Source of the DNA: Paraflavitalea sp. CAU 1676
Lineage (GTDB): Bacteria; Bacteroidota; Bacteroidia; Chitinophagales; Chitinophagaceae
Length of the DNA: 51,441 nucleotides
Direction of reading: 5' to 3'
Assembly (NCBI RefSeq): GCF_029223285.1
Contig: NZ_JARHUJ010000016.1
Location: 1-51,441 of the forward strand
The notes beneath the pieces were generated by a model. It saw nothing but the letters and a program-made list of their open reading frames with translations. It was not told where the DNA came from and did no database searches. A program made the translations under genes and the position numbers. Positions 22,292-39,622 of the stretch are shown here, piece after piece (within the stretch, counting starts at the first letter, position 1; each line of letters opens with the position of its first letter).

Positions 22292-23572
22292 CTATTCAAA
22301 GAACGGCACACCCGGTATCGCATATTTCTTCATACCGGCCTCATTGATCTCTACACCGATGCCCGGCTTGTCGCTTACAGTGATGAAGCTATCTTTCACC
22401 CATTCACCCTCGAAGGTGATGATCTCTTTGAACATGGGTTGCGTGTGAAAATACGACTGCCACTCCATGATCATAAAGTTGGGCACCGTGGCACACACAT
22501 GCGCACAAGCCATCGCTCCCAAAAAGGAGGCCACCATATGCGGCGCAAAAGGAACATAGTATAAGTTGGCCAGGTTGGCAATGCGCTGTCCTTCACCCAG
22601 TCCGCCACATTTTTGCAGATCGGGCATCACGATATCGACCGCGCCGATCTCCAGCATGCGCCGGAATCCATAGGCCAGGTAATGGTTTTCTCCGGCACAG
22701 ATGGGCGTACTCGTCGATTCGGTGATCAGCTTGTAGGCCTCCACATTTTCTGCCGGGATAGGTTCTTCCAGCCACATCAGGTTCAACGGCTCCAGGCGTT
22801 TTGCAATGGTTTGCGCCGTCACCGCATCATAGCGTCCGTGCATATCCGCACAGATGTCGATATTGGGTCCCACGGCCTCGCGCGCTGCCGACAGCTGGTC
22901 GTACATGCGTTGCAATTCGGCCGGGCTCGCCGTCCAGTTATAAAAATCATATTTATTGGGGTCGTTGGCCTGGTCAAGGTCGAACTTGATGGCATTAAAG
23001 CCCATTTGCTTTGATTTCTTCGCTGCTTCGGCAAAATCGGAAGGCTGGGGCAGGTTGCGCTGGTACAAAGCCGTATCGCAATACACCCGCACCTTGTCGC
23101 GGAACTTGCCACCCAGCAATTGGTACACGGGCAGCTTCAACGCTTTGCCGGCTAAGTCCCACAAGGCTGTTTCAATGGCCGACAATACGGCAATGTACAT
23201 GCCCGATTGCGCACCCTGGAAAAAGCCCGATTTACGGATATCCTCAAACAAGCGGTGCACGTTCAGCGGGTTCTTTCCTTTAATGCGCTCTCCAAAGTTC
23301 TTTACCAGGTGATAAGTACCAGGAATGGCGTCCACGCCTTCGCCGCAACCCCAGATATCCTGGTTACTATATATTTTCACAAAAAGGCTACCGCGTATAT
23401 AGCCGCATTTGATATCGGTGATCTTCAGATCGGAAGGGGGAGAAGCCATCGGCGTCCTCTCCACCGCGGCTTCGTATTCCCTTCCAAAAGCAGATAATCC
23501 GGCCAGTGGCGTCATCGCAGCCGCCACCGCCGCCTTGCTGATAAAATTCCTTCTTGAGTGATGAGCCGTCAT
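22292..23572 (-). CDS. Tat-exported enolase-superfamily sugar-acid dehydratase
   Basis: A 426-residue mandelate-racemase-subgroup enzyme. The N-terminus has a twin-arginine signal (HSRRNFISK, 5-13) and a hydrophobic stretch. Metal ligands are D243, E269 and E295; catalytic candidates are K196 and D198 (KFD), H245 and H345. The block ADMHGRYD (242-249) resembles galactonate/gluconate-type dehydratases, which turn an aldonate into its 2-keto-3-deoxy form by removing the C2 proton and C3 hydroxyl. Export of a dehydratase is unusual. It is the last gene of a leftward operon, 43 bp after a RraA-fold gene, and a paralogue of the gene at 25752-27311. Confidence 0.88.
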   Translation of the reverse strand: MTAHHSRRNFISKAAVAAAMTPLAGLSAFGREYEAAVERTPMASPPSDLKITDIKCGYIRGSLFVKIYSNQDIWGCGEGVDAIPGTYHLVKNFGERIKGKNPLNVHRLFEDIRKSGFFQGAQSGMYIAVLSAIETALWDLAGKALKLPVYQLLGGKFRDKVRVYCDTALYQRNLPQPSDFAEAAKKSKQMGFNAIKFDLDQANDPNKYDFYNWTASPAELQRMYDQLSAAREAVGPNIDICADMHGRYDAVTAQTIAKRLEPLNLMWLEEPIPAENVEAYKLITESTSTPICAGENHYLAYGFRRMLEIGAVDIVMPDLQKCGGLGEGQRIANLANLYYVPFAPHMVASFLGAMACAHVCATVPNFMIMEWQSYFHTQPMFKEIITFEGEWVKDSFITVSDKPGIGVEINEAGMKKYAIPGVPFFE

Positions 23573-23615
23573 AGCAAATAGTTTTATGATGTTCAGGTAT
23601 ATTCAAAACCCACTT

Positions 23616-24572
23616 TTACCAGGTCCTGCCTTTCAAGAGTTCCTGGATCTGGCTTTTCGGCACCGGCAGTTTGTCGATATGATCATTGAGCCATTTAGAA
23701 AAGTCTTTTTCAATATCATCACTCCAGCGGTTATCGATCTGCCCCGGCGTATATTTGCCTTCGCGCAGCCGCTGGTGGCCAAACATGTCCCGCAGCCGCA
23801 CGATCTCCGAGGTCTTGATCACTTTTTCGGCGAGGTGTGGGGGAATGAAGATGACGCCGCCATCACGGCCCAGTACTACATCGCCCGGCATTACTGTAGC
23901 CTTACCGATGCGCGTGGGTTGATTAATGCCCACCAATGTGGTATTGAGATCGCCGGCGGGATTGTTGAGGTGATGCGAAGGATGGTAACTGCGAAAGAAA
24001 GACGTGAAACCGCCAATCTCTTTCAGTCCCTTGATATCCCGCACCGCGCCGTCGTATACGATACCATTGCCTGTTTTAGCATAAATAGAATTGCCGAGGT
24101 TGTCGCCAATGGTAGGACCATCCTCATACGCATCGAACTGATCCACCACATACACATCGCGCTTCACCAGCAGATCAATGGGCCAGGAGTTCTGCGACTT
24201 GACACGTTTATCACGCACGCCAAACTGATCGATGACGCGATGAATATCCGGTCTCCCGGGCATAAAGATGGCTGTCACGGCACGCCCCACCAGCACACTG
24301 TCGGGATTTACCGTTTGCCAGCCTCCATCATATTGGTGTTTGTAGTTCTCATTCTTCAGCACCGCCCAGGCCTCCTCCAAAGTCACCAGCTTCATACGAT
24401 CGAGCAAACTATCCGGCACTTTGGGCCTGCCATCGGCAAAGCGATCGCCTTTCCACTCGGGCGTAAGCGCGATCAATTGATCGCGGGATATCTGCTGGGA
24501 GTAGAGTGTGACGCCATAACTCATCAGGCACGTCGCGAGCACCATTCCCTGCCAGTATTTTAGTAAGTGCAT
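23616..24572 (-). CDS. Exported RraA-fold protein (aldolase-like), copy 1
   Basis: A 318-residue protein with a Sec-type signal peptide (about 1-26, TLYSQQ). The core (about 90-260) is the RraA/HMG-aldolase fold: PTIGDNLGNSIYAK (153-166) and YDGAVRDIKGL (173-183), with R178 and D179 corresponding to the metal/substrate pair of 4-hydroxy-4-methyl-2-oxoglutarate aldolases. N- and C-terminal extensions (TPEWKGDRFADGRPKVPD and FGHQRLREGKYTPGQID) are shared with the paralogue at 27372. Likely reaction: metal-dependent cleavage or decarboxylation of a 2-oxo acid. An RNase E inhibitor role is excluded by the signal peptide and active site. It lies 11 bp after the BASS gene. Confidence 0.85.
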   Translation of the reverse strand: MHLLKYWQGMVLATCLMSYGVTLYSQQISRDQLIALTPEWKGDRFADGRPKVPDSLLDRMKLVTLEEAWAVLKNENYKHQYDGGWQTVNPDSVLVGRAVTAIFMPGRPDIHRVIDQFGVRDKRVKSQNSWPIDLLVKRDVYVVDQFDAYEDGPTIGDNLGNSIYAKTGNGIVYDGAVRDIKGLKEIGGFTSFFRSYHPSHHLNNPAGDLNTTLVGINQPTRIGKATVMPGDVVLGRDGGVIFIPPHLAEKVIKTSEIVRLRDMFGHQRLREGKYTPGQIDNRWSDDIEKDFSKWLNDHIDKLPVPKSQIQELLKGRTW

Positions 24573-24583
24573 AACCTAGCAGT

Positions 24584-25720
24584 TTAAGAGTAAGAAGATT
24601 GTTGTTGATCATTCGTGGCAGGTTGTGTTGTTTTACCAGTTGAAGCCTCTTCAGCCGGTGGGTGGTTGTGCCACCAGCTCGCCAGCGATGAGCCCGTGAT
24701 GTTCATGACCGGACCAAAGATCGCGGGCGCCAAACCGGCCGTAGTGAGCTTGCCCATTGCCAGCGCCAGCCCCGAAGCCAGTCCGGCATTCTGCATACCC
24801 ACCTCCAGCGCAATGGTCCTGCAGTCACGTTCATGAAAGCGCAGCAAGCGCGCACTCCAGTACCCCATAAAGTAACCCAACACGTTGTGCAGTACGGTAG
24901 CGATCAGCAGCAGCGCGCCCACCTGAAGCAGGTTGTCTCTGCCCGCAGCCGTGATGATGGTAAGGATGATCGCAATACCCGCCATCGACACCAGGGGCAT
25001 CGCTTTATCGAGCCACTTGAATTTGCCATGCACGAGATAATGAAACCCTAAACCAGCGGCCGTAGGTATGATCACGATCTTGGTGATATCCCATACCATG
25101 CCCCAGAAGTTGATATCGACAAAGCTGCCGCCCAGCAAACGCATGAGCAGCGGTGTTAAGAACGGAGCAACCATGGTGGAGATTGTCGTTACTGAAAACG
25201 ATAAGGCGAGATTCCCCTTGGCGAGGTAACACATCACATTCGAAGCAAGACCACTCGGACAGCATCCCACCAGGATGATTCCGGCCGCAATTTCATTGGG
25301 AAAATTAAAGGCCTTCGCTACGGCGAAGCCTACCAGCGGCATGATGATATAATGGCAAACAACGCCAACAATAATTCCCTTGGGCATGCGCAGCACGTTC
25401 GCAAAGTCCTTTAAACTTAATTCCGTACCCATACCAAACATGATGATCTGCAAGAGTGGAATGATCAACCCCGATAATTTAAAGTCGCCAACTGTTTTGA
25501 AGTGCCAGGGATAGTAAAGTGCCAGGCTCACCACAGCCATCACCATCAGGGTATAAGAGAGGCCCTTTAGTAATCGGTGTTGCCGGAAGGCGAGTGCCAG
25601 GCAAAGGAAAAACAGCAGCAGGATCCAGCCACCCCAGCTGTGCTGCCCCTGTATCGCGAGCACCCCATAGACGACCAGGGTGGCCGCGGATAACAAGTAA
25701 AACAAAGTCGATCGTTTCAT
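24584..25720 (-). CDS. BASS-family sodium:organic anion symporter
   Basis: A 378-residue membrane protein with about ten helices. Family motifs are GCCPSGLASNVMCYLAKGN (about 152-170) and EVGMQNAGLASGLALA (about 311-326), which form the crossover sodium-binding region of the bile acid:sodium symporter family. Bacterial and plant BASS members carry bile acids, pantothenate precursors, pyruvate or other 2-oxo acids. Sandwiched between two exported dehydratase/RraA pairs, it most likely imports the organic acid they make (inference). The C-terminus is a hydrophilic, Thr/Gln-rich tail. Confidence 0.9.
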   Translation of the reverse strand: MKRSTLFYLLSAATLVVYGVLAIQGQHSWGGWILLLFFLCLALAFRQHRLLKGLSYTLMVMAVVSLALYYPWHFKTVGDFKLSGLIIPLLQIIMFGMGTELSLKDFANVLRMPKGIIVGVVCHYIIMPLVGFAVAKAFNFPNEIAAGIILVGCCPSGLASNVMCYLAKGNLALSFSVTTISTMVAPFLTPLLMRLLGGSFVDINFWGMVWDITKIVIIPTAAGLGFHYLVHGKFKWLDKAMPLVSMAGIAIILTIITAAGRDNLLQVGALLLIATVLHNVLGYFMGYWSARLLRFHERDCRTIALEVGMQNAGLASGLALAMGKLTTAGLAPAIFGPVMNITGSSLASWWHNHPPAEEASTGKTTQPATNDQQQSSYS

Positions 25721-25751: not shown

Positions 25752-27311
25752 TCAACTCCAGATCCTGTCATGTGAGCGCACATCGTTCCACTGCGGGGTA
25801 GGAGCGAAGTACGATTTATCGTTGGCATGCAGGTGCTGCTTTACCACTTCATCATTCAGTTCTATGCCCAATCCCGGCGCCGTCAACGGCAGGTTGGCAA
25901 ACCCTTTCGTGATCAGCTTCCTGCCATCGGTCGTTTTCACCAGGTCTTCCCACCAGGGAAGGTCGATCGAGTGATGTTCGAGCGAAAGAAAGTTTTGTGT
26001 AGCCGCCGCACAATGAACGCTTGCCATAAACGAAATGGGAGTACCCGCCTGGTGCATCGCCATCGCCACGCCATTCTCCTCGGCATAGTCGCCAATGCGC
26101 TTTGTCTCCAATAAACCGCCCGAAGACGCCAGATCGGGATGCACGATATCCACCGCCCGCTTATCGATCAGCGGCTTGAAGTATTTAAGCAGGTAAATAT
26201 CTTCACCCGTAAGACAGGGCGTTTCCAACGCGTCGCTCAAAGTCTTCCATTGGTCGGTCAACTCCCACGATACGATATCTTCCAGCCAGGCCAGCCGGTA
26301 CTTTTCGATCGCTCTTCCTAAGCGGATCCCATTATTCAGATCGAAGTGGCCGTAGTGATCGGAAGAGATCGGCGTTTCATAGCCCACCATGCTGCGTACA
26401 TTTTCTACAATGCGCGCCAGTTCCTCCAATCCCTTATCCGTGATCTGGATCTGCGTCATCGGATGCAGCGTATTGGCGTACGACATGGAGTTGCGCATGT
26501 CACCCCACTGTGCCAGGTTGCCCTGCGCATTGCGCCACGCATCCGCATTGACCAGGGTGCCCGGCTTATCTTTCAGTTCATTGATCGATATATCCATCTT
26601 TAACCAGGTGTATCCCTGGTCTTTCAGGCGGTATTGGATCAGGCGCTTTTGTTCTTCCGGCGAACTGGCCTCGGGCGTATCGGCATACAAGCGCACTTTA
26701 TCACGGTATCGACCACCCAGCAACTGCCAGGCCGGTACATTGTATGCCTTGCCGCACAAGTCCCACAAAGCCATCTCCACGCCACACACGCCACCGGCCT
26801 GCCTCGACTGTCCGCCGAATTGCCTGATCTTCTTGAATAGCATCTCCACATTGCAGGGATTCTCACCCAGTATGCGGCTCTTCAACATCAGGGCATAGCG
26901 TTCATCGGCGCCATCGCGCACTTCGCCCAATCCGTAAATACCCTGGTTGGTATCAATCCGAATCATCGCCGTGCGACCCAGTACCGTGGTAACACAATAT
27001 CGCATGTCGGTAATCTTAAGGTCAGAAGGTGTCGAGAACCGGCGCACCTTTTGAGTGCTTTGCGCCACCACTTCTTCAATGGGCAACATAGCGCTCGCCG
27101 CGCCAAGGGCAATACCACCGAGGGTGGTTCGCTTCAGGAAAGAACGGCGGCTGTTCTGTGCAGTATTTTCCAACTCTCCATTCTCATCAACGCCAGACGT
27201 CATCGATGATGCATGGCTGCCAACGCTCCCCGTTGCAACAGGTTGAGCTATTTCAACAGGTACGGGGTCCTGCAACCCCAGTTTGTTCAGGATCTTTTGA
27301 GATGGTGTCAT
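25752..27311 (-). CDS. Tat-exported enolase-superfamily dehydratase with unusual 50-residue N-terminal extension
   Basis: A 519-residue paralogue of the gene at 22292. Metal ligands are D318 (PISSDHYGHF), E344 (AWLEDIV) and E370 (LTGEDI); catalytic candidates are K238 and D240 (LKMDIS) and H420 (AMHQAGTP). The twin-arginine motif NSRRSFLKR is at 53-61, preceded by about 50 residues (beginning MTPSQKILNKLGLQDPVPVE) that are longer than a normal Tat n-region. The start ATG is clear and no better start lies just before the signal. The active-site blocks differ from the first copy (SDHYG in place of ADMHG), suggesting a different sugar acid. It lies 60 bp after RraA copy 2 and 31 bp before the BASS gene. 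Confidence 0.88.
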   Translation of the reverse strand: MTPSQKILNKLGLQDPVPVEIAQPVATGSVGSHASSMTSGVDENGELENTAQNSRRSFLKRTTLGGIALGAASAMLPIEEVVAQSTQKVRRFSTPSDLKITDMRYCVTTVLGRTAMIRIDTNQGIYGLGEVRDGADERYALMLKSRILGENPCNVEMLFKKIRQFGGQSRQAGGVCGVEMALWDLCGKAYNVPAWQLLGGRYRDKVRLYADTPEASSPEEQKRLIQYRLKDQGYTWLKMDISINELKDKPGTLVNADAWRNAQGNLAQWGDMRNSMSYANTLHPMTQIQITDKGLEELARIVENVRSMVGYETPISSDHYGHFDLNNGIRLGRAIEKYRLAWLEDIVSWELTDQWKTLSDALETPCLTGEDIYLLKYFKPLIDKRAVDIVHPDLASSGGLLETKRIGDYAEENGVAMAMHQAGTPISFMASVHCAAATQNFLSLEHHSIDLPWWEDLVKTTDGRKLITKGFANLPLTAPGLGIELNDEVVKQHLHANDKSYFAPTPQWNDVRSHDRIWS

Positions 27312-27371: not shown

Positions 27372-28295
27372 TCACCAGGTTCGTTGCTTCATGAATTCAT
27401 CCAGCTCCTGGCGGCTCATCGGCAGTTTATCGGGATTGGCATCCAGCCATTGCAGAAAATCCTTTTTGATAGCATCTGTCCATTGTGTGTCGATCTGTCC
27501 GGGTGTATACTTCCCTTCGCGCAGCCGTTGATGGCCAAAGGCATCGCGCAAGGAAATAAACTCTGCATTCAATACTACTTCTTCCAACAGGTGGGCAGGA
27601 ATGAAGACCACGCCGCCCTTCTTGGCCAGTACTGCATCACCGGGCAAAACAGTGGCACGCCCGATACGAATGGGCACATTGATGCCCCCCAGCATCATCT
27701 GTTGTATGTAAGAGGGATCATAACCTTTGATCCAGCCATTGAAACCTTTGATCTCTTCCAGACCTTCTATATCACGAACCGATCCATAAAAGATCACCCC
27801 GCGGGCCGATTTGGCATAGATCGCATTGCCGAGGTTATCGCCGATCAGCGTACCATCCACCACTTTTCCATAACTATCGGCCACATAGATATCGCCATTC
27901 TTCAACACATCGATGGGCCAGCTATTGGGCGCCCCAATGCGGGCTTCGGCTTTTCCCTTGTCTTTAATGATCTTGTCTACATCAGGACGCAAGGGCATAT
28001 ACTGAGCTGTAACGGCCCGGCCCGTCATCACCGAATCGGGATGGATCACCATCCATTCGCCTTCAAACTGGTTCATGTATCCTTTGTTGCGCAAAATGCC
28101 CCAGGCCTCTTCGAGGTGCACGCCTTTCAACCGTTCCAGTAGCTTATCAGGCACCTGGGGCCGGCCATCGGCCGATCGTTCGCCCTTCCACTCTGGCGTT
28201 AGTGCTTTGAGCTGCTCAGCCGTAAGGCTAACCTGTTGCGCCTGCACACAGGCACACGCTATCGTTAGTAACAGGAGAAAGAAGGTCCTTTTCAT
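27372..28295 (-). CDS. Exported RraA-fold protein (aldolase-like), copy 2
   Basis: A 307-residue paralogue of the protein at 23616, with a clear Sec signal peptide (about 1-19, CVQAQ). The RraA core has LIGDNLGNAIYAKSARG and FYGSVRDIEGL (169-179), with R174 and D175 in place. It shares the N-terminal TPEWKGERSADGRPQVPD region and C-terminal extension with copy 1. The pairing RraA then enolase repeats the order of the other pair, so a duplication of the two-gene unit is likely, with the BASS gene now between the pairs. Confidence 0.85.
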   Translation of the reverse strand: MKRTFFLLLLTIACACVQAQQVSLTAEQLKALTPEWKGERSADGRPQVPDKLLERLKGVHLEEAWGILRNKGYMNQFEGEWMVIHPDSVMTGRAVTAQYMPLRPDVDKIIKDKGKAEARIGAPNSWPIDVLKNGDIYVADSYGKVVDGTLIGDNLGNAIYAKSARGVIFYGSVRDIEGLEEIKGFNGWIKGYDPSYIQQMMLGGINVPIRIGRATVLPGDAVLAKKGGVVFIPAHLLEEVVLNAEFISLRDAFGHQRLREGKYTPGQIDTQWTDAIKKDFLQWLDANPDKLPMSRQELDEFMKQRTW

Positions 28296-29903: not shown

Positions 29904-30791
29904 TTATTTATTACGCAAATGATTATTCCTGAATTCGCTCGGCCGGTAACCAGTCAGTTTTTTAAAGGTGGTCGAAAAATGTTGTGACGAATAGAAGCCG
30001 GTGTCCAGCGCAATGTCGGTAACACTGATATCAGGCCGTTTCAACATTTTAATAGCTTCCGAAATACGGATGTTAATGAGGTAATTGATGGGCGAAAAAC
30101 CGGAATAGCTTTTCACCCGCTCCGTAAAAAGGGTAGTACCCATACCTACCAGCGCCGCCATTTCTTCTACTGTCCATTGATGGGCAAGGTTTTCCCGCAA
30201 TACTTCTTCCAGCCGCATAAAGGTTTTGGGAAAGTCGCGCCCGGGATGACTTTGCCGCGTCATATGCCGTGTGATCTGAATCAGTAGTTCGTCGATGAGG
30301 TGATTGATACGCGCCTGGTAGCCGATCTCATGGCCAAACAATTCAGTCTGAATACTCTTGAGGATCTTACCCGCATCCTGGAAATGAGAAAGCACCGGCG
30401 AACTGCTGAGCGATAACAACTTACCGATGGCAGCGCCTTCCGCTTCCGATAATCCGCTCCATTTACCCGGCAGGATATGACCATTCTCCTGTTTCTGAAT
30501 ATTAAGATGCACCCAGGTAAAAGAACCGATCTCCAGCACACCATGGTCGCTGCCAAACGATGTGCCGGGCATTATCAAAACCACATCGCCGGGGTATAAG
30601 ACATATGCTTCGTGGTTGAGGCGCCACTCGAACTTGCCTTCTATTATATAATATATGCGGATGCCTTCGGTGGCAGTGGAGGGGAATGCGTGTAACTGAA
30701 TGGAGCCATTCTTTTTTGCGCCCACTTCCAGCAGGTGCGGAAACAACCGCAGCTCAGGAGATTTACCGTGTTGGAGCACAAATTGATTCAT
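29904..30791 (-). CDS. AraC-family regulator of the sugar-acid locus
   Basis: A 295-residue regulator. The start is the ATG at 30791; an upstream TTG at 30818 is less likely. The N-terminal cupin domain (about 15-140; YYIIEGKFEWRLNHEAYVLY, then PGDVVLIMPG) should bind a ligand, and the C-terminal double helix-turn-helix (about 195-290) includes TVEEMAALVGMGTTLFTERVK and VTDIALDTGFYSSQHFSTTFKK. It sits exactly between the two divergent operons, upstream of the kinase and 174 bp from SusC, so it is the obvious regulator of both, probably with a sugar acid as inducer (inference). Confidence 0.92.
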   Translation of the reverse strand: MNQFVLQHGKSPELRLFPHLLEVGAKKNGSIQLHAFPSTATEGIRIYYIIEGKFEWRLNHEAYVLYPGDVVLIMPGTSFGSDHGVLEIGSFTWVHLNIQKQENGHILPGKWSGLSEAEGAAIGKLLSLSSSPVLSHFQDAGKILKSIQTELFGHEIGYQARINHLIDELLIQITRHMTRQSHPGRDFPKTFMRLEEVLRENLAHQWTVEEMAALVGMGTTLFTERVKSYSGFSPINYLINIRISEAIKMLKRPDISVTDIALDTGFYSSQHFSTTFKKLTGYRPSEFRNNHLRNK

Positions 30792-30913
30792 ATGGCTTAA
30801 GCAGTTAGGCTGAAACAATCGCTAAAAACGGAACCTCTATAAAGAAAGGAAATTTATTCGTGTCAGATGTACAAAATTCAACGCAGTTTTATTTTGGTAG
30901 TTTTTGAGGCGAA

Positions 30914-30965: not shown

Positions 30966-33900
30966 ATGAAAAAGCTCACCAGCGGCAGGCCATCCCGCAT
31001 CGCGGGACCATGGCTGCTTTTCATCTTTCTTTTTCTACAATCCGCCGCCCACGCCCAAACCATCACAGGAACCGTATCGGATGAAAAAGGTACGAAACTT
31101 TTCAACGTATCTGTGTTGATAAAAGGAACCTCACAGGGAACCACCACCGATAGCGTTGGCAAATACAGCCTTGCTGCTGCAGCCGACGTTGTACTTGTAT
31201 TTAGTTCCGTAGGTTTTAAGAGTTCAGAAATACCAGTTGGCGGCCGCCGGGTCATCAATATTACGCTTACTTCCGATGGACAGGATCTCGGCGAAGTGGT
31301 GGTTACCGCACTCGGTATCAAAAAGCAATCCCGCGCACTCGGTTATTCAGCCACCAGCGTAAAACCAGAAGAACTCACAGTAAACCGCACCAGCAATGTA
31401 ATGAACTCCCTGCAAGGAAAAGTGGCCGGGGTCAATATCTCCTCGCTGGGTACCGGCCCGGGCGGCACGTCCAAAATAAGGATACGCGGACAATCGTCGC
31501 TGGCCGGACAAAACAATCCGCTCATTGTTATTAATGGTGTACCTGTCGACAATACCAACTTCAACGACAACACCATTTCCGTAAAAGGAGGGGGCGTGTA
31601 TGCGGATGGTGGTGATGGCCTTTCCAGCATCAACCCTGACGATATCGAGAGCATGACCATCTTAAAGGGGGCACCTGCATCGGCCCTCTATGGATCGCGT
31701 GCAAAGGATGGGGTAATAATGATCACGACTAAAACAAGGGGAAAAACAAAAGGCATTGGAGTTACTTACAACCTCAATTATACCAACGATACACCGCTTG
31801 ACTTCACCGAATACCAAAGCGAATACGGACAGGGAGAGAACGGTGCAAGGCCAACAGCGCCCAATCCCACGTCGGGCCAATGGTCCTTTGGCGAAAAGTT
31901 TGCCGGCCAGTCACACATACTCTTTAACAACCTCACGGTTCCCTATCAGCCACAGGGTAGTCGCATCAAGGAGTTCTACCGGAACGGACAAAACATAGCG
32001 AATACCATCGCTTTCGAAGCAACCAGTGAAAAAGGAGGTTTAAGACTTTCACTGAACAATACCGATAACCAGGGGATCATGCCCAATAACTCCTTCAACA
32101 GGAAAAGCATCAATCTCGGTTTTAGCTACAATCTCACGGAAGAGTTCCTGGTGTCGGGTAGCGTTAATTATTCGAAGGAGTATAATAAAAACCCGCCCAA
32201 TATTGCCAACCAGGACAACTCCATTCCAACCACACTCATGGCCATGTCTACCTCCATGCCATTGAGTGTACTGGATGCCAACAAATTCAATGCAGCCGGT
32301 AACGAATATCCCTGGTCACGGTTTACCAACCGAACCAATCCGTACTGGGTATTGGCCAGTCAATTCCACAATATCAGGCGCGACCGCTTATTCGGCAACG
32401 TCGCCTTAAAATATAACTTGTTACCCTGGCTTAGTGTGCAGGGCAGGATGGGGCAGGACTATTGGTCGCGCGATGAGGACGTGAACAATTTCCCCACGGG
32501 CCAGGCATCGCGTGCTGCGGCGCCTCCCGGTTTTGTCAATGGTATATTTACCCAGGAGAGCCGTCGCTTTCGTGAAACCAATCTGGACTTCCTGATTAAT
32601 GCCAACAAAGAATTTGGCGATATCGGAGTAAACCTGACAGCCGGTGGCAACCGTATGCGCAAGCGCTCGGATATCAACAATGTGGTGGTCACCGATTTCA
32701 TCATTCGCGACCTCTACACTGTACAGAATGGCCGTGCCAAGGACCCTGTGTACACGCTAATAGAACAGGGCGTTAATTCTTTATACGGATCGGCCGAAAT
32801 CAACTGGCGGCAAACCGTCTACCTCACCGGAACGGCCCGCAACGATTGGTTCTCGACCTTATCACCGGCCAACAGGAGCATCCTCTATCCATCGGCATCG
32901 GCCGCCTGGGTATTCTCCGAACAACTCAAAACTTCCAGCTGGCTCAACTTTGGCAAACTACGGCTCGGCTATGCAGAGGTAGGCAGCGATGGCGATGTAG
33001 CGCCCTATGCCGACCAGTTGTTCTATACCCCAAATGCCAACTTCATCAATAACCCCAGTGGCACACCCGTACCCGTTGGTACCAGCAATATCGCCAATGG
33101 AGCCACCGGTACCACATTGCCCAATCCTAACCTAAAGCCAAGCCGCGTGTCGGAAGCAGAAGTCGGCCTGGAATTGCGGATGTTTAACAACCGGGTAAAT
33201 ATAGACGTTGCTGCATACAGAAAGATCACCAAAGATCAAATCGTTTCCGTGCAGATATCCGACGCCTCCGGTTATTTCAATACCCCGATCAACAGCGGCA
33301 AGAGCCGTAACTATGGTTTCGAAGCGATGGTCAACCTGGTCCCCATCAGGAACCGGCACTTTAGCTGGGAGTTTACCGCCAATACCTCCTATAATATCAC
33401 CAAAGTATTAAGCATCATCACCGACAAACCCGGCGAACGCATCACTACCGGCACCCACGTATTCAATGGCGAAACCCGCCAGGTAGTAGGAGAAGAGATC
33501 GGTCAGATAGCCGGCTATGCCTATGCCCGCGACGCCAAGGGCCAACGGATATTTCAATCGAATGGATTGCCCTTACGTACCGGAGATTTTGTATTGTTTG
33601 GCAGCGCACTTCCTAAATGGGTTGGCGGCTTTATGAATACGTTCAACTATAAGGGCGTACACCTGATCGTTTTCGTGGATTATAAATTGGGCAATAAAGT
33701 ACTTTCCGGCACCAACTTCAATGCGGTGCGGCACGGCCTGCATCAGATGACCCTCGAAGGCAGGGTTAGCGGTGTCAAAGGAAATGGCGTAGATGCAAAC
33801 GGTAATCCCAACAATGCAGTAGCGCCGGTACAAACCTATTGGGAACACCTGCGTTCTCAGCAGATCGTTGAACCTGTGATCTATGATGGGGGCTATTGGA

Positions 33901-34133
33901 AGCTGCGGCAATTGTCGCTGGGGTACGACTTCACCAAACACCTCCCGGCCAAATGGCCCATCAAGGGTGTGAAGCTTGACTTTGTAGCCATGAACGTATT
34001 CATCATCAAGAAGTGGGTCGATAATATCGATCCCGAAACCTTTGGTTTTGGGTCCGACAACCAGGTAGGGCTCGAATCGCCGGGCCTGCCTACGACACGC
34101 AGTCTTGGTTTGAACCTGAACATCAGGTTTTGA
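30966..34133 (+). CDS. susC: SusC-family TonB-dependent outer-membrane transporter
   Basis: A 1055-residue protein of normal SusC length. Signal peptide (about 1-30, SAAHAQ); carboxypeptidase-regulatory-like domain (about 33-110); TonB-box-like GEVVVTALG (about 109-117); plug domain (about 125-260, with VAGVNISSLGTGPGG, then PLIVINGVPVD); 22-strand barrel to the terminal aromatic-ending strand (SLGLNLNIRF). It forms the channel that, together with the SusD lipoprotein, takes up oligomeric ligand with energy from TonB. Unlike most SusC genes it is followed by catabolic genes for sugar acids rather than secreted glycosidases, so its ligand is probably an aldonate or an aldonate-bearing glycan. 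Confidence 0.96.
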   Translation: MKKLTSGRPSRIAGPWLLFIFLFLQSAAHAQTITGTVSDEKGTKLFNVSVLIKGTSQGTTTDSVGKYSLAAAADVVLVFSSVGFKSSEIPVGGRRVINITLTSDGQDLGEVVVTALGIKKQSRALGYSATSVKPEELTVNRTSNVMNSLQGKVAGVNISSLGTGPGGTSKIRIRGQSSLAGQNNPLIVINGVPVDNTNFNDNTISVKGGGVYADGGDGLSSINPDDIESMTILKGAPASALYGSRAKDGVIMITTKTRGKTKGIGVTYNLNYTNDTPLDFTEYQSEYGQGENGARPTAPNPTSGQWSFGEKFAGQSHILFNNLTVPYQPQGSRIKEFYRNGQNIANTIAFEATSEKGGLRLSLNNTDNQGIMPNNSFNRKSINLGFSYNLTEEFLVSGSVNYSKEYNKNPPNIANQDNSIPTTLMAMSTSMPLSVLDANKFNAAGNEYPWSRFTNRTNPYWVLASQFHNIRRDRLFGNVALKYNLLPWLSVQGRMGQDYWSRDEDVNNFPTGQASRAAAPPGFVNGIFTQESRRFRETNLDFLINANKEFGDIGVNLTAGGNRMRKRSDINNVVVTDFIIRDLYTVQNGRAKDPVYTLIEQGVNSLYGSAEINWRQTVYLTGTARNDWFSTLSPANRSILYPSASAAWVFSEQLKTSSWLNFGKLRLGYAEVGSDGDVAPYADQLFYTPNANFINNPSGTPVPVGTSNIANGATGTTLPNPNLKPSRVSEAEVGLELRMFNNRVNIDVAAYRKITKDQIVSVQISDASGYFNTPINSGKSRNYGFEAMVNLVPIRNRHFSWEFTANTSYNITKVLSIITDKPGERITTGTHVFNGETRQVVGEEIGQIAGYAYARDAKGQRIFQSNGLPLRTGDFVLFGSALPKWVGGFMNTFNYKGVHLIVFVDYKLGNKVLSGTNFNAVRHGLHQMTLEGRVSGVKGNGVDANGNPNNAVAPVQTYWEHLRSQQIVEPVIYDGGYWKLRQLSLGYDFTKHLPAKWPIKGVKLDFVAMNVFIIKKWVDNIDPETFGFGSDNQVGLESPGLPTTRSLGLNLNIRF

Positions 34134-34180: not shown

Positions 34181-35722
34181 ATGAAAAAGATATTCCGCTA
34201 TATAGTACCGGTATTCCTTGTCTTCGCGATTAGTTCCTGCGAAAAGGGATGGTCGGACCTCAACGTGAACAAAACAAGCCCTACGTCATTAGATCCGGCC
34301 CTGTTGCTCAACCAGGCGGTGATCAACAGTTCATGGCCGGTAAAAACGCTCGTATTCGATGTGGGCATCGTGCAACAAATGATAACGCCCAATGGCGGTG
34401 TACTGGCAGGCGCCAATTTTAACCAGGATAGCCGGGACATCACTACCCAGCCACTTTGGACGGCCTATTATCAAAGTGTGATCAAGAATACCTACGATGC
34501 CCTGACCCGCTCCAAAGACCTCACGGCGCGTCCCAACATGTACCAGATGGCACGCATCTACCAGGCTTATGTGTTTATGATCCTCACCGATGCCTATGGC
34601 GATATCCCTTATACTGAAGGGGGCGCCGGCCTCACCAGCCGCATCCTCTTTCCGAAATACGACAAGCAGCAGGACATCTATCCCAAGCTCATCCAGGAGC
34701 TCACAGAAGCAGCAAACGCTCTCAATGCCACTGCCACCATTGAAACCGGTGATGTATTATATGCAGGCGAAGTGGCCAAATGGAGGAAGTTTGCCTATTC
34801 ACTCTTATTGCGCGCGGGTATGCGCCTCGTGAAGATAGACCCGGCCAAGGCACAAAGCACCGTACAGGCAGCAGTAGCCGGTGGCGTTATCACCACCAAT
34901 GCCGACAATGCTTATATCCGGCACGACGCCAACTTTACGCAACCCATCGGCGGTACGCTTAATGGCAGCGAAGCTGCCAACTTCTATCTTACCAAACCAT
35001 TTGTTGATCAACTGAAGAACACCAACGACCCACGCCTGCAGGCCATCGCCATCCGATATGTGGGAGCCGCCAGCGGTGCGGGTCAAACAGTGGCCGTCGG
35101 CAGCACCGATCCCGCCAAGCAGATCGGTATGCCCATGGGGAAAGACAATGGCACCATTGCCGCAGCGGCCACAGCCGACGGCCTCGTGAGTTTCTATGAT
35201 TATAGCCAGGTCGACCGGCGCCGCATGGTAAAAATATCTTCCCCGGTATTTCTCGTCACCGCCGCGCAAACTAACCTGCTGCTCGCCGAAGCCCGCCACC
35301 GTGGCTGGATCACCGCTGGCACGGCCGCCCAGTATTTTGCTGACGGTATACGCGCCCATATGGACCAAATGGCCTTATACGATCCCAATAGCGCCGTGGC
35401 TGGATCTGCCCGTGATACCTATGTGGCCGCCAACCCGCTGAACGCCGGCACCGAGCTGCAACAGATCAATACACAATATTGGATCGCATCTTTTCTCATT
35501 GGTCCCGAAGCATTCGCTAACTTTAGAAGGAGCGGATACCCCGCCCTTACACCCAACCCCTACGGACAACCCAATAATCCCGATGTACCCAACGGCACCT
35601 TTATCAGGCGGCTCACGTATCCCACCTCCGAACTGAGTGTGAATACGGACAACGTGAACACGGCTATCAGCAACCAGGGGGCCGACAAACTGAGCACAAG
35701 GATTTGGTGGGATAAACAATAG
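34181..35722 (+). CDS. susD: SusD-family outer-membrane lipoprotein
   Basis: A 513-residue ligand-binding lipoprotein that forms the lid of the SusC barrel. The start is the ATG at 34181; a TTG overlapping the SusC stop would add 17 residues ahead of the signal. The lipobox ends ISSC (17-20), so C20 is lipidated. The N-terminal TPR-like helices include YQMARIYQAYVFMILTDAYG and WRKFAYSLLLRAGMRL; the latter block is a hallmark of SusD_RagB/SusD-like-2 proteins. It lies 47 bp after SusC and 4 bp before the dehydratase gene, so it is in the same operon. Confidence 0.94.
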   Translation: MKKIFRYIVPVFLVFAISSCEKGWSDLNVNKTSPTSLDPALLLNQAVINSSWPVKTLVFDVGIVQQMITPNGGVLAGANFNQDSRDITTQPLWTAYYQSVIKNTYDALTRSKDLTARPNMYQMARIYQAYVFMILTDAYGDIPYTEGGAGLTSRILFPKYDKQQDIYPKLIQELTEAANALNATATIETGDVLYAGEVAKWRKFAYSLLLRAGMRLVKIDPAKAQSTVQAAVAGGVITTNADNAYIRHDANFTQPIGGTLNGSEAANFYLTKPFVDQLKNTNDPRLQAIAIRYVGAASGAGQTVAVGSTDPAKQIGMPMGKDNGTIAAAATADGLVSFYDYSQVDRRRMVKISSPVFLVTAAQTNLLLAEARHRGWITAGTAAQYFADGIRAHMDQMALYDPNSAVAGSARDTYVAANPLNAGTELQQINTQYWIASFLIGPEAFANFRRSGYPALTPNPYGQPNNPDVPNGTFIRRLTYPTSELSVNTDNVNTAISNQGADKLSTRIWWDKQ

Positions 35723-35726: not shown

Positions 35727-37448
35727 ATGAGCGAACACAAACTACGCAGCCACGATTGGTTTGGCAGAAAAGACAAGGACGGCATTATTTACAGGAGTTG
35801 GATGAAGAACCAGGGCATGCCCAATGATATGTTCGACGGGCGGCCTGTGATCGGCATCTGCAATACCTTCAGCGAACTCACCCCCTGCAACGCCCATTTC
35901 CGCGATCATGCCGAAATGGTGAAGCGGGGTGTATTGGAAGCCGGTGGCTTCCCGGTGGAGTTTCCCATCATGAGCCTGGGTGAAACACTATTGAAGCCCA
36001 CCGCCATGTTGTTCCGCAACCTCGCCAGTATGGATGCCGAAGAAAGCATCCGCGGAAATCCCATCGATGGGGTGGTATTGCTCACCGGCTGCGATAAAAC
36101 CACGCCTTCAACGGTGATGGGCGCTGCCAGTGTAGGCTTACCTACGATTGTGGTACCCGGCGGCCCGATGCTGAACGGGCATTACAAAGGGCAACAGATA
36201 GGCTCCGGAACCCATGTGTGGAAATTCGACGAAGACATGAAGACGGGCAAAATGACGCAGGAAGATTGCGAGTTTGCGGAAAGCTGTATGAGCCGCAGCA
36301 TTGGTCATTGTATGACGATGGGTACGGCCAGCACGATGGCCTGCATGGTAGAATCGCTTGGCCTCACGCTGCCCGGTGCAGCAGCCATACCAGCGGCCGA
36401 TAGCCGCAAAAAGCAAATGGCCCAGCTCAGTGGCCGCCGTATCGTAGAAATGGTGCGGGAAAACCTCACGATCGATAAGATACTCACCCGCGAAGCCTTT
36501 GAGAATGCCATCAAGGTGAATGCCGCTGTAGGAGGATCGAGCAATTTCATCATCCACCTCATCGCGATCGCCGGCAGGATCGGCGTGCCCCTGCAACTCG
36601 AAGACTTCGACACGCTTGGCAGCAAAATACCCTTGCTGCTGAACCTGATGCCATCGGGCAAATACCTGATGGAAGACTTTTTCTATGCAGGCGGACTACC
36701 CGTGATATTGCATGAACTGCGGGAACACCTGCATAAGCAGGTGGTGACCGTTACCGGAAAAAACCACCACGATAACCTGCAAAAAGAGGTGAAATGTTAT
36801 AATGAAGAGGTGATAGCGCCGCTGTCGAAACCGTTTATGCCCGAGGCGGGCTGCATCGTGATAAAAGGAAACCTCGCCCTGCATGGCGCGGTAATGAAAC
36901 CCTCGGCTGCCACGCCGGCCCTGATGAAGCACCAGGGCCGGGCCGTGGTATTTGAAAGTATTGAAGACTATCATGCCCGTATCGATACACCCGACCTTGA
37001 TATCGATGCCAGTTGTGTGATGGTATTGAAATACGTGGGGCCAGTGGGTTATCCCGGCATGCCCGAAGTGGGCAATATGGCCCTTCCCAAAAAGCTGCTG
37101 CAGCAGGGGGTAACCGATATGGTGCGCATCTCAGATGGCCGCATGAGTGGCACCGCCTATGGCACAGTGGTGTTGCACGTCGCCCCCGAAAGCGCCATCG
37201 GCGGCAACCTGGCCCTGGTAGAGAACGGTGATATGATCGAACTCGATGTGGCGCAGCGCCGCCTGCACCTCGACGTACCTGAAGAAGAACTGGCGCGGCG
37301 CCGGGCAGCATGGACTCCCCCCAAACCCGCCGCCAGCCGCGGATACGTGAGCCTTTATATCAAACATGTATTGGGAGCCGATAAAGGGGCCGACCTTGAT
37401 TTTCTGCAGGGCAATTCAGGATCGGCCGTTACCAGAGATTCGCATTAA
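35727..37448 (+). CDS. IlvD/Edd-family sugar-acid dehydratase (arabonate/xylonate type)
   Basis: A 573-residue cytoplasmic dehydratase, close to the length of L-arabonate dehydratases. Fe-S cluster cysteines are C54 (LTPCN), C122 (TGCDKTTP) and C195 ([11 protein letters not shown]). K124 is the carbamylated-Lys/metal position, and [11 protein letters not shown] holds the catalytic Ser. The reaction should be aldonate to 2-keto-3-deoxy-aldonate. With the FAH-family enzyme that follows it fits the non-phosphorylated pentonate route to 2-oxoglutarate semialdehyde. Six-carbon aldonates (galactonate, gluconate) are also possible substrates of this subfamily. Confidence 0.92.
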
Positions 37449-37474: not shown

Positions 37475-38302
37475 ATGAAATTATACAAAACAAGCTCGGG
37501 CCCCGTCGCAGAAACCGAGGGCCGGTATTACCGGATCATCGAGAACTGGGAAACCCTAGTCAATGACGACCAGCTATACGAGAAACTCGAACACCTCATA
37601 AAGGCAGCACCCGCCACTGAAGATGATATCATCGATGAGTTGCTGCCACCCATGGGCAGCCACCAGGAATTATGGGCCTGCGGCGTTACCTATTTACGCA
37701 GTAAGATCGGCCGGCAGGAAGAGAGTCAGGCCGCCGGCGGTGCAGACTTCTATGCCAAAGTGTATGAAGCAGAACGCCCCGAAGTATTCTTCAAATCCAC
37801 CTACCATCGGGTGGTTGGTTCAGGCGCACCCGTACGCATCCGCAAAGACAGCACCTGGGATGTACCCGAACCGGAACTCACCCTTGTGGTTACCGCAACC
37901 GGCAAAATAATCGGCTATACGGTGGGCAATGACATGAGTAGCCGCAGCATAGAAGGGGAGAACCCTTTGTACCTGCCACAGGCAAAGACCTATGATGGCA
38001 GTGCAGCAGTTGGCCCCTGTATATTTGTAACCCGTGAACCGTTACCACCTGACACCACGATCCACCTCGCCATTAGCCGTAATGGCCAGGAGGTATTTAC
38101 AGGTACTGTGCAGATCAGTCAAATGAAAAGGACACCCCAGGAACTGGTGTCCTTCGTATACCGGGAATGCAGCTTTCCGCATGGCAGTCTCATCATGACA
38201 GGCACAGGCATCGTGCCCGGGCACGACTTCACCTTGCAAAGTGGTGATCGCATCGCCATCACCATCGACGGCATTGGTACACTCCAAAACACCGTACAAT
38301 AA
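37475..38302 (+). CDS. FAH-family enzyme, 2-keto-3-deoxy-aldonate dehydratase-like
   Basis: A 275-residue cytoplasmic enzyme of the fumarylacetoacetase fold. Metal ligands are E132 and E134 (PEPELTLVV) and D153 (GNDMSSRS), with K171 in [13 protein letters not shown]. The N-terminal part, [18 protein letters not shown] (67-84), is typical of the members that dehydrate 2-keto-3-deoxy-D-arabinonate to 2-oxoglutarate semialdehyde; related members cleave or hydrolyse 2,4-diketo acids. The gene lies 26 bp after the IlvD-type dehydratase, whose product would be its substrate. A semialdehyde dehydrogenase would complete the route, but none is in the window. Confidence 0.87.
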
Positions 38303-38305
38303 CGC

Positions 38306-39622
38306 ATGACCATCCTCATCATCGTACTGGCCATCGGGTTACAGATATATCTTTCGGCCAAGAAAGTGAGTCCGTTCCTATCCTTATTGATAGTAGCCAT
38401 CCTGGCCGGGCTCAGCCTCGGCATGAAACCCGGCGAGCTGTTGCAATCCATCGAGAAAGGAGTGGGTAGTACCCTGGGCGGATTGGCGCTCATCATTTGC
38501 CTCGGCGCTTTTCTCGGTAAGATACTGGAGGTAACCGGCGCGGCTGAACAGATCACCACGACGCTTATTCGTGCATTTGGCATTAGTAATATCCAATGGG
38601 CTGTAATGCTCACCGGTTTTCTCATCGGTATACCGCTCTACTACAATGCGGGCTTTGTGATCCTGGTGCCGCTGGTGGTAGCGCTCACCCGTAAAACTGG
38701 CCTGCCCTTGTTGTACATCGTGATCCCGATGGCAGCCTCCCTCAGTACCACGCACTGTTTCCTGCCACCACATCCCGGTCCGGTCGTGCTCGTGAAAGCA
38801 TTCAATGCCGATATGGGCAAAGTGCTGCTGTATGGCATCGTTATGGCCATCCCGGCCGTCATCGTGGCCGGCCCCTTGCTGGGCAGGATACTTAAAAACT
38901 TAACCACTCCAGCGCAGGACCAGGCTTTGACGGCCGCAGCGGCAGCCAGCCGGCAACCGCTGCCTTCAGTAGGTGCCAGCTTGTTATTCGCCCTGATGCC
39001 GGTAGGGTTGATTGCCATGGGCGTATTGGCAGCGCAGTTGCTGCAAAAAGAAACAGCGCTGCACAGCGTCTTCCATTTCCTCGGCGATCCGGTGATCGCC
39101 TTATTAATAACCGTGCTATTGGCCGTTTACTGGCTGGGTATACGGGCTGGCCAAACCATGACGCAGATGATGAAACTGCTGTCGGATGCCATTGCAGGAA
39201 TCGCCATGATCCTGTTGATCATAACGGCAGGCGGCGTATTCAAGCAAGTACTCATCGATAGTGGAACGGGCAGTTATATAGCAGGTTTCAGCAGTCACTG
39301 GCAAATGCCGCCTTTGTTGTTTGCCTGGGTCATTACTGCCTTGTTGCGGGTGATGATCGGTTCAGCTACCGTGGCCGGCATCACGGCAGCGGGTGTTGTT
39401 GCGCCCTTGCTGACCGCGGGCAATGTATCGCCCGAGCTGATGGTGCTGGCCGTAGGGGCGGGGAGTGTCTTCGGCTCCCACATCAATGACTCCGGCTTCT
39501 GGATGTTCAAGGAGTTCTTCGGACTCACCCTTCCTCAAACCCTGCGTTCCTGGACGGTCATGGAAACCGTTATATCTGTCATAGGGCTGGCAGGGGTATT
39601 GGTGCTGGAAGCCATTTTATAG
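38306..39622 (+). CDS. GntP-family gluconate:proton symporter
   Basis: A 438-residue inner-membrane permease with about twelve hydrophobic segments. Motifs characteristic of GntP transporters are GIPLYYNAGFVILVPLV, MAASLSTTHCFLPPHPGPV, and GSATVAGITAAGVVAPLL with HINDSGFWMFKEFFGL near the C-terminus. It should bring gluconate or related aldonates from the periplasm to the cytoplasm for the IlvD/FAH pair and the gluconokinase-like enzyme. It starts 3 bp after the FAH gene and is the last gene of the operon. I see no clear terminator after it. Confidence 0.95.
   Translation: MTILIIVLAIGLQIYLSAKKVSPFLSLLIVAILAGLSLGMKPGELLQSIEKGVGSTLGGLALIICLGAFLGKILEVTGAAEQITTTLIRAFGISNIQWAVMLTGFLIGIPLYYNAGFVILVPLVVALTRKTGLPLLYIVIPMAASLSTTHCFLPPHPGPVVLVKAFNADMGKVLLYGIVMAIPAVIVAGPLLGRILKNLTTPAQDQALTAAAAASRQPLPSVGASLLFALMPVGLIAMGVLAAQLLQKETALHSVFHFLGDPVIALLITVLLAVYWLGIRAGQTMTQMMKLLSDAIAGIAMILLIITAGGVFKQVLIDSGTGSYIAGFSSHWQMPPLLFAWVITALLRVMIGSATVAGITAAGVVAPLLTAGNVSPELMVLAVGAGSVFGSHINDSGFWMFKEFFGLTLPQTLRSWTVMETVISVIGLAGVLVLEAIL

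What the first reader, a model, noticed from the sequence alone, without database searches (positions are those of the whole stretch)
22292..39622. A 17-kb SusC/SusD locus aimed at sugar acids rather than neutral glycans
Seen: two divergent operons share one interval. Leftward: AraC, FGGY gluconokinase-like kinase, RraA-fold, enolase-superfamily dehydratase, BASS, RraA-fold, enolase-superfamily dehydratase. Rightward: SusC, SusD, IlvD/Edd dehydratase, FAH enzyme, GntP. Gaps within each are 3-60 bp. Known: IlvD/Edd and enolase-superfamily dehydratases act on aldonates, GntP carries gluconate-like acids, and SusC/D imports oligomeric ligands. Inference: this is a polysaccharide-utilisation-like locus whose ligand is an aldonate or an aldonate/uronate-capped oligosaccharide, with no secreted glycosidase in it. 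I do not know a described locus of this composition.
Basis: partly seen in the sequence, partly recalled or inferred. Interest (0 to 1): 0.9.

Follow-up and report, generated by a model that had tools for sequence, protein, structure and literature searches.

The report
Xylan-linked locus with exported sugar-acid enzymes
A soil-type bacterium carries a gene cluster that probably feeds on sugars from plant xylan by an oxidative route, and part of that route, a dehydratase and aldolase pair, appears to work outside the inner membrane, which would be unusual for sugar breakdown.

Summary
Gene inventory and coordinates are confirmed. 'Aimed at sugar acids rather than neutral glycans' is only half right. 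(1) The rightward enzymes look like a pentonate oxidation limb: an L-arabinonate-dehydratase-type IlvD/Edd and an FAH protein closest in the PDB to 2-keto-3-deoxy-D-arabinonate dehydratase. Of 32 close FAH homologues in 195 family genomes (window included), 27 have this IlvD nearby, 19 the exported RraA, 13 a GH10 xylanase. So the SusC/D ligand is more probably a xylan oligosaccharide, with sugar acids as intermediates. RraA and enolase genes are neighbours in 75 of 80 named Bacteroidota loci, often with SusC/D and a BASS transporter. RraA keeps the aldolase residues R-D in 140 of 140 sequences reaching the site. Best reading: a periplasmic 'dehydrate then cleave' module for sugar acids, coupled to BASS uptake. 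Substrates, products and location are inferred. No description was seen in the literature searches made. New variant of a known kind.

The parts
22292..23572 (-). ENO2: Tat-signal enolase-superfamily (GalD-type) sugar-acid dehydratase
   Evidence: Pfam MR_MLE_N/C; best NCBIfam galactonate dehydratase 245.7 bits, cut-off 311; SRRNF Tat motif; D-x-H/E/E/H kept in 31 of 31 relatives labelled ENO2
23616..24572 (-). RRA2: exported RraA-fold class II aldolase-like protein
   Evidence: Pfam RraA-like 2.1e-15; Sec-type signal; R-D motif
24584..25720 (-). BASS-family transporter (PanS-like), probable 2-keto-acid uptake
   Evidence: Pfam SBF; best NCBIfam PanS 254 bits, cut-off 400; TIGR00841 241 bits, cut-off 326
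25752..27311 (-). ENO1: Tat-signal enolase-superfamily protein with a D-H-Y/F site
   Evidence: Pfam MR_MLE; TAT_signal_seq 23.8 bits, above cut-off 16.7; twin Arg in 88 of 88 full-length ENO1, window included
27372..28295 (-). RRA1: exported RraA-fold class II aldolase-like protein
   Evidence: Pfam RraA-like; AF2 model pLDDT 85.7; Foldseek matches to RraA fold and HMG/CHA aldolase 3noj
28333..29892 (-). FGGY kinase, gluconokinase-like, substrate unresolved
   Evidence: NCBIfam gntK_FGGY 428 bits, cut-off 648.55; XylB 281.7, cut-off 380; PDB best 3gbt gluconate kinase
29904..30791 (-). AraC-type regulator
   Evidence: Pfam HTH_18/AraC_binding
30792..30965 (.). divergent regulatory region, conserved among close relatives
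   Evidence: alignment of 9 sequences
30966..34133 (+). SusC-like TonB-dependent transporter
   Evidence: TIGR04056 629 bits, above cut-off 368
34181..35722 (+). SusD-like lipoprotein (SusD-like_2)
   Evidence: PF12771 3.7e-77
35727..37448 (+). ILVD: IlvD/Edd pentonate-type dehydratase
   Evidence: PRK06131 912.7 bits, above cut-off 539; L-arabinonate dehydratase model 865.3, cut-off 882; PDB 8ej0 and 5j83
37475..38302 (+). FAH: 2-keto-3-deoxypentonate dehydratase-like (KdaD type)
   Evidence: PDB best 2q18, 2-keto-3-deoxy-D-arabinonate dehydratase, 5.9e-53, next best 4.9e-19
38306..39622 (+). GntP-family aldonate permease
   Evidence: TIGR00791 509 bits, above cut-off 292.75
10743..14757 (+). 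GH43, GH97 and Tat-type Gfo/Idh/MocA oxidoreductase run; possible supplier of xylose and xylonolactone, linkage to the locus not conserved
   Evidence: Pfam GH43, GH97, GFO; best NCBIfam D-xylose 1-dehydrogenase Gfo6 172.5 bits, cut-off 350; Gfo orthologues elsewhere in the two congeners

Best explanation
The locus is the oxidative, sugar-acid limb of xylan/pentose use in a Chitinophagaceae bacterium, split over two compartments. SusC/D bring xylan-derived oligosaccharides into the periplasm (inferred). Glycosidases and an exported oxidoreductase plus lactonase, encoded elsewhere in this genome or in the same run in some relatives, release pentoses and oxidise them to pentonates (inferred). 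Limb A, cytoplasmic: GntP imports the pentonate, IlvD dehydrates it to 2-keto-3-deoxypentonate, the FAH enzyme dehydrates that to alpha-ketoglutaric semialdehyde, and a semialdehyde dehydrogenase encoded elsewhere yields 2-oxoglutarate (Weimberg logic). Limb B, periplasmic: a Tat-exported enolase-superfamily dehydratase makes a 2-keto-3-deoxy acid, an exported RraA-fold aldolase cleaves it to pyruvate plus a short aldehyde, and BASS imports the 2-keto acid (Dahms/Entner-Doudoroff logic). Shown: gene families, gene order, conserved signal-like N-termini and active-site residues, co-occurrence. Inferred: compartment, substrates, products, direction of BASS.
For: FAH closest to 2-keto-3-deoxy-D-arabinonate dehydratase; IlvD closest to L-arabinonate-type dehydratases. 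In the 32 examined FAH loci, by BLAST label: an ALDH in 10, SMP-30 in 10, Gfo/Idh/MocA in 8, GH10 in 13. The two ALDHs tested have 2,5-dioxovalerate dehydrogenase as best NCBIfam model, far below cut-off (118 and 128 bits of 750). All 13 GH10 are borne out by the Pfam model; 11 lie within 2 kb of FAH, those of G161 and G172 13-20 kb away. The own genome has one match at E 1e-20 or better to a 260-residue piece of that ALDH, at C2, in what I read as a hydroxyproline cluster, and four GH10 ORFs. Exported signals: a hydrophobic stretch before the domain in 137 of 139 RraA, RRxF-type motif in 122 of 125 enolases. Rhizobium homologues without signal start where the extensions end and lie as an enolase-RraA pair beside a sugar ABC transporter; the own genome has TatC. 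RraA-enolase adjacency in 75 of 80 named loci; R-D in 140 of 140, aligned with HMG/CHA aldolase. In other loci exported RraA sits with exported SelA-like lyase, amidohydrolase and often RidA, a set resembling the GlcNAc1A-to-KDG pathway (PMC9537276, passages).
Against: No activity, localisation or expression data. No SignalP-type tool was available, and my crude signal score also flagged 16 of 23 FGGY kinases, so it is not specific by itself. Window and congeners lack GH10, lactonase and the ALDH in the locus, and 15 of 20 loci with window-type SusC/D show no labelled GH10/43/51/127 in the fetched stretch. ENO1 has Tyr or Phe where GalD-type enzymes have the acid His (role of that His recalled), so its reaction may differ. 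RraA family members include non-aldolases (recalled), and the aldolase models listed for RRA1 and RRA2 all stay below their NCBIfam cut-offs. The FGGY kinase profile points to gluconate, not pentose. Of two plasmid RraA neighbourhoods opened, only one has an enolase beside RraA.
Confidence: 0.5

Rival explanations
1. One reading: SusC/D imports aldonates or aldonate/uronate-capped oligosaccharides, and all enzymes serve that ligand.
For: No GH within the 17 kb of the window or of the two congeneric loci; GntP and several dehydratases present; many RraA-enolase loci have SusC/D and no labelled GH nearby (labels from a short reference list).
Against: GH10 inside the orthologous run in some relatives and GH43/51/127 nearby; window-type SusC/D with GH10/43/51 in 5 of 20 loci; monomeric aldonates are small enough for porins (general knowledge).
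Confidence: 0.2
2. Dehydrate-and-import: ENO makes a 2-keto-3-deoxy acid in the periplasm and BASS imports it intact for cytosolic FAH or KDG kinase; RraA does something else, such as decarboxylation or isomerisation.
For: In one Bacteroidales locus BASS adjoins a PfkB kinase whose best NCBIfam matches are an aldolase/sugar-kinase fusion and KDG/KDGal kinases, all below cut-off (L135); BASS closest to the ketopantoate transporter PanS; the G064 and G098 loci have FAH, ENO2, RRA2 and BASS with no IlvD in the fetched stretch.
Against: The two IlvD-less genomes have a 64%-identical IlvD on another contig; RraA keeps R-D in 140 of 140 and is almost always beside ENO even without BASS.
Confidence: 0.25
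3. Hexonate locus: gluconate or galactonate is the substrate; GntP plus FGGY gluconokinase feed 6-phosphogluconate, and ENO is a galactonate dehydratase.
For: FGGY best model gluconokinase, PDB best gluconate kinase; ENO best model galactonate dehydratase; YhcH, a family with an anomerase for largely cyclic 2-keto acids, beside some RraA-ENO loci (PMC8141875 passages).
Against: FAH and IlvD point to pentonates; xylan enzymes in orthologous loci; among the IlvD-FAH loci annotated, a YhcH label appeared only in G027.
Confidence: 0.2
4. Signals are decorative and the enzymes work in the cytoplasm as in rhizobia.
For: The Rhizobium enolase-RraA pair has no such extension and lies beside ABC importer genes; ENO1 has an unusually long n-region of about 30-50 residues before the twin arginines.
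Against: Signals kept in nearly all relatives, whose record titles span several Bacteroidota orders; both partners carry them; other neighbours (SelA-like, Gfo, part of RidA) carry Tat motifs too.
Confidence: 0.1

Closest known systems
Polysaccharide utilisation loci (SusC/D type) for xylan
   Same: SusC/D pair, AraC regulator; in 17 of 32 related FAH loci GH10, GH43, GH51 or GH127 in or beside the run
   Different: carries sugar-acid dehydratases and a GntP permease; no GH in the window's own 17 kb
Weimberg-type pentonate pathway (reviewed in PMC9795676, passages)
   Same: pentonate dehydratase of IlvD/Edd type and FAH-type 2-keto-3-deoxypentonate dehydratase; part of the relatives add SMP-30, Gfo-type oxidoreductase and ALDH
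   Different: embedded in a SusC/D locus; the Gfo and SMP-30 proteins of relatives mostly carry Tat-like or lipoprotein-like N-termini; in the window the ALDH is elsewhere
Dahms / non-phosphorylative Entner-Doudoroff cleavage
   Same: logic of dehydration then aldol cleavage of a 2-keto-3-deoxy acid
   Different: aldolase of RraA fold and both steps probably outside the inner membrane; known examples are cytosolic (recalled)
HMG/CHA aldolase (class II, RraA fold, PDB 3noj)
   Same: fold, G-D and R-D motifs aligned
   Different: about 20% identity, exported, about 70 residues longer, substrate unknown
Rhizobial enolase-RraA pair beside a sugar ABC transporter (CP050515)
   Same: same two enzyme families adjacent
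   Different: no signals, ABC importer instead of SusC/D and BASS
ong pathway for GlcNAc1A (PMC9537276, passages)
   Same: deacetylase, PLP lyase and RidA leading to KDG, roles also present in exported RraA clusters of relatives
   Different: cytoplasmic, PLP enzyme of another fold, kinase instead of aldolase; not in the window

Membership tests
SusC/D polysaccharide utilisation locus | tandem SusC and SusD | tested here: met
   TIGR04056 and PF12771
SusC/D polysaccharide utilisation locus | at least one carbohydrate-active enzyme in the locus | tested here: not met
   none in 22,292-39,622; GH43 and GH97 7.5 kb away; GH10/43/51/127 in 17 of 32 related FAH loci
Weimberg pathway cluster | pentonate dehydratase | tested here: inconclusive
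   PRK06131 above cut-off; L-arabinonate dehydratase model 865.3 against cut-off 882
Weimberg pathway cluster | 2-keto-3-deoxypentonate dehydratase | tested here: inconclusive
   closest PDB relative is KdaD; activity not testable
Weimberg pathway cluster | aldose dehydrogenase, lactonase and KGSA dehydrogenase in the cluster | tested here: not met
   absent from the 17 kb; one ALDH match elsewhere in the genome; present in part of the relatives
D-galactonate dehydratase (GalD) | D-x-H, E, E, H active-site set (recalled) and curated score | tested here: inconclusive
   residues met for ENO2 in 31 of 31, not for ENO1; score 245.7 below cut-off 311
HMG/CHA-type class II aldolase | RraA fold with metal-binding Asp and pyruvate-binding Arg (recalled) | tested here: met
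   R-D in 140 of 140, aligned to 3noj, fold
HMG/CHA-type class II aldolase | curated family score / aldolase activity | tested here: not met
   47-59 bits against cut-offs of 179 and 304.5; activity not testable. It is therefore not filed as a member
FGGY gluconokinase | TIGR01314 cut-off | tested here: not met
   428 against 648.55 bits
GntP gluconate:H+ symporter family | TIGR00791 cut-off | tested here: met
   509 against 292.75 bits
Tat-exported protein | twin-arginine motif followed by hydrophobic stretch | tested here: met
   TIGR01409 above cut-off for ENO1, not listed for ENO2; SRRNF in ENO2; 122 of 125 enolases of relatives with RRxF-type motif

The most novel reading that the evidence does not exclude
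Bacteroidota widely export a two-enzyme machine, an enolase-superfamily dehydratase plus an RraA-fold aldolase, that carries sugar acids through a non-phosphorylative Entner-Doudoroff/Dahms-type cleavage in the periplasm, so that pyruvate or another 2-keto acid, not sugar, crosses the inner membrane through a BASS carrier. The same aldolase-carrier core is fed by different exported front ends: dehydratases for aldonates, or deacetylase, PLP lyase and RidA for amino-sugar acids.
Probability: 0.4. Interest if true: 0.8.

Novelty: new variant of a known kind. Interest (0 to 1): 0.6.

Why it matters
In described SusC/D systems the periplasm is where glycans are cut to sugars and the cytoplasm is where sugars are broken down (general knowledge). 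A conserved exported dehydratase-aldolase pair would move central carbon chemistry to the periplasm in many Bacteroidota. It is directly testable with two purified enzymes.

Tried and rejected
Expected a dedicated aldonate/aldobionate importer, and dropped this as first choice when GH10 turned up inside the orthologous run. Took the IlvD-less G064 and G098 loci for proof that ENO2 replaces IlvD; withdrew it as proof because each has a 64%-identical IlvD elsewhere, and those IlvD neighbourhoods were uninformative. Considered FGGY as the local xylulokinase: not supported, two other own-genome kinases score higher on XylB and none passes its cut-off. Considered the GH43-GH97-Gfo run at 10.7-14.8 kb as part of the locus: orthologues of the Gfo are on another contig (G162) or about 40 kb away (G085) in congeners, so it is only listed as possible. 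Signal scoring by hydrophobicity alone was not specific. ENO1 was modelled but not compared by structure.

Literature: searches returned no paper. Searches (12 papers, all listed; 1; 109, of which 15 listed; 24, of which 10 listed) showed none whose title or abstract start described such a locus; the unlisted ones were not seen. Searches gave the pathway papers used, of which I saw passages only. The library holds open-licence papers only.

Limits of the counts. The 32 FAH places (window and two congeners included) are the full-length ones at 64% identity or more among the 69 matches; one 123-residue fragment at 78% identity (G025) was left out, and the other 36 were not examined. Stretches differ in length (5-35 kb). 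Labels come from BLAST against a short reference list: they were tested by Pfam or NCBIfam for part of the proteins only and miss remote members; the window's own GH43 was missed by the labels, so one search counts the window as without GH43. One search merged loci of one contig and dropped five duplicates before counting. In one search identical sequences were counted once; one RraA without a recognisable domain start was left out of the signal count, and the two that fail lie just under my threshold. One of the three enolases without RRxF is a truncated ORF, and the other two are distant enolases (32% and 26% identical to ENO2) with twin arginines in another context.

Full report
What is there. 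The window is a whole contig (C8, 51,441 bases) of an 8.8-Mb genome. The twelve genes of the finding are present at the given coordinates. Leftward from a 174-bp divergent region run AraC, an FGGY kinase, RRA1, ENO1, a BASS carrier, RRA2 and ENO2. Rightward run SusC, SusD, an IlvD/Edd dehydratase, an FAH protein and GntP.

The rightward enzymes. The IlvD/Edd protein passes the PRK06131 cut-off and falls just short of the L-arabinonate dehydratase model (865.3 against 882 bits). Its nearest solved relatives are 8ej0 and the L-arabinonate-type dehydratases 5j83/9evv. The FAH protein is far closer to 2-keto-3-deoxy-D-arabinonate dehydratase (2q18, 5.9e-53) than to any other solved protein (next 4.9e-19). 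Together they spell pentonate to 2-keto-3-deoxypentonate to alpha-ketoglutaric semialdehyde; the review PMC9795676 (passages) places both families in that pathway. The missing last step has one candidate in this genome, at C2 (51% identity to a 260-residue piece of a relative's enzyme). Its neighbours read like a hydroxyproline cluster (my reading of the sequences), whose pathway shares that semialdehyde (recalled).

The xylan connection. In 195 sampled family genomes the FAH protein is found in 67, at 69 places. I examined the 32 full-length places at 64% identity or more, the window and two congeners included. By BLAST label, 27 have this IlvD nearby, 21 GntP, 21 SusC, 19 RRA2, 18 ENO2, 18 BASS, 13 GH10, 10 an ALDH, 10 an SMP-30 protein and 8 a Gfo/Idh/MocA oxidoreductase. 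The ALDHs of two loci have 2,5-dioxovalerate dehydrogenase as best model, far below cut-off. In G160 and G083 the order is ENO2-RRA2-BASS-FGGY-AraC / SusC-SusD-ALDH-IlvD-SMP30-(esterase in G160)-FAH-GH10-GntP with mostly short gaps. The 13 GH10 genes are all found again by the Pfam model, 11 of them within 2 kb of FAH, those of G161 and G172 13-20 kb away. Four GH10 proteins were also scanned singly (one of them from L101, outside this set). A Gfo oxidoreductase beside IlvD (L206) has D-xylose dehydrogenase Gfo6 as its best NCBIfam model, below cut-off. Of 18 genomes searched for GH10, 17 have it, with at most six matched stretches each. A GH10 within 2 kb of a given gene is then expected in under 1% of cases (my estimate) against 11 of 32 (the loci are not independent). 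This makes xylan oligosaccharides the likelier SusC/D ligand. Against it: the window and its congeners have no GH10 at the locus, and 15 of 20 loci with window-type SusC/D show no labelled GH10/43/51/127. The genome has four GH10 ORFs elsewhere, near sequences I read as alpha-glucuronidases (not tested by a family search).

The exported pair. RRA1 and RRA2 begin with Sec-type signals, ENO1 and ENO2 with Tat-type signals. Over the relatives collected, 137 of 139 RraA sequences in which the domain start could be found have a hydrophobic stretch before it, and 122 of 125 enolases have an RRxF-type motif. Rhizobium homologues without signal align from residue 49 of RRA1, 53 of RRA2, 96 of ENO1 and 47 of ENO2, so the extra N-termini are about the signals and linkers. 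The own genome has TatC. RraA and enolase genes are neighbours on one strand in 75 of 80 named loci; two of the five exceptions lack a right-hand neighbour at the contig end. SusC and SusD lie within six genes in 36, BASS in 34. Carriers include Dyadobacter, Mucilaginibacter, Chryseolinea, Pontibacter, Niastella, Flavisolibacter, Saprospiraceae and Bacteroidales records. RRA1 relatives are found in 47 of 195 family genomes, and the RraA profile matches 24 of 395 in a phylum sample.

What the pair could do. RraA keeps R-D in 140 of 140 sequences that reach the site and an Asp at the G-D position in 133 of 140; both align with HMG/CHA aldolase 3noj, whose use of these residues I recall. The AF2 model (pLDDT 85.7) matches RraA folds and 3noj. 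ENO2 keeps the D-x-H, E, E, H set in 31 of 31. ENO1 instead has D-H-Y (69) or D-H-F (19) of 88, so its chemistry may differ. In ten other loci (L057, L059-L065, L089, L091) the exported RraA sits with exported amidohydrolase and SelA-like PLP enzyme, with RidA in 7 and BASS in 9 of the ten, and in some with SMP-30 lactonase, PQQ dehydrogenase or GH20. The same roles, in part by different folds and in the cytoplasm, turn GlcNAc1A into KDG in Pseudoalteromonas (PMC9537276, passages). The shared denominator would be a 2-keto-3-deoxy acid. YhcH proteins beside some pairs (signal-like N-terminus in 3 of 4) fit too, as YhcH opens cyclic 2-keto sugar acids for an aldolase (PMC8141875, passages). It had no effect with the mostly open 2-keto-3-deoxyxylonate, which argues for hexonate substrates in those loci.

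How it probably works. Xylan oligosaccharides enter by SusC/D; pentoses are released and oxidised; pentonate is either imported by GntP and burnt to 2-oxoglutarate, or dehydrated and cleaved outside by ENO and RraA with uptake of the 2-keto acid by BASS. AraC controls both operons from the conserved intergenic region (inferred). The role of the FGGY kinase is open.

Novelty. Each part belongs to a known family; the combination in a SusC/D locus and the exported dehydratase-aldolase pair were not seen in the searches made (two of these listed only part of their papers). I rate it a new variant of a known kind; if periplasmic cleavage is shown, it would deserve more.

Noticed in passing
L057, L059-L065, L089, L091: Exported RraA with Tat-type SelA-like PLP enzyme and exported amidohydrolase in all ten, BASS in nine, RidA in seven, GH20 in two, SMP-30 lactonase in several: looks like a periplasmic route for amino-sugar acids.
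   Followed up: partly
window 25752-27311: ENO1 proteins of many relatives start with a conserved MTPSQKxLxKLGL stretch some 20-40 residues before the twin arginines; purpose unknown.
   Followed up: no
window 10743-14757: GH43, GH97 and a Tat-type Gfo6-like oxidoreductase in one run 7.5 kb left of the locus; Gfo orthologues in the two congeners are not next to the locus.
   Followed up: partly
window 30792-30965: About 60 bp between AraC and SusC strongly conserved in nine aligned sequences, a likely regulator site and promoter.
   Followed up: partly
L133, L135, L138, L141, L142, L151, L172 (mostly Bacteroidales records): RRA1-ENO1 pairs in another setting: a BASS gene nearby in these, beside a sugar-kinase-type PfkB gene in L135, and a polygalacturonase-like gene in L172.
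   Followed up: partly
L243 (Rhizobium leguminosarum plasmid CP050515): Enolase-superfamily gene without signal next to 'ribonuclease activity regulator RraA' beside sugar ABC genes; the RraA name is probably misleading there too. A second plasmid region opened (L244) has no enolase beside its RraA.
   Followed up: partly
L094 (G000:C2): Semialdehyde dehydrogenase in a probable 4-hydroxyproline cluster, which may serve the window's pathway in trans.
   Followed up: partly
window 21468-22283: 3-oxoadipate enol-lactonase-like alpha/beta hydrolase (242.2 bits, cut-off 255.85) with a divergent AraC gene, abutting the locus; not seen beside it in the congeneric loci.
   Followed up: no
window 45663-47822: GH92 glycosidase downstream of the locus, apparently unrelated.
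   Followed up: no
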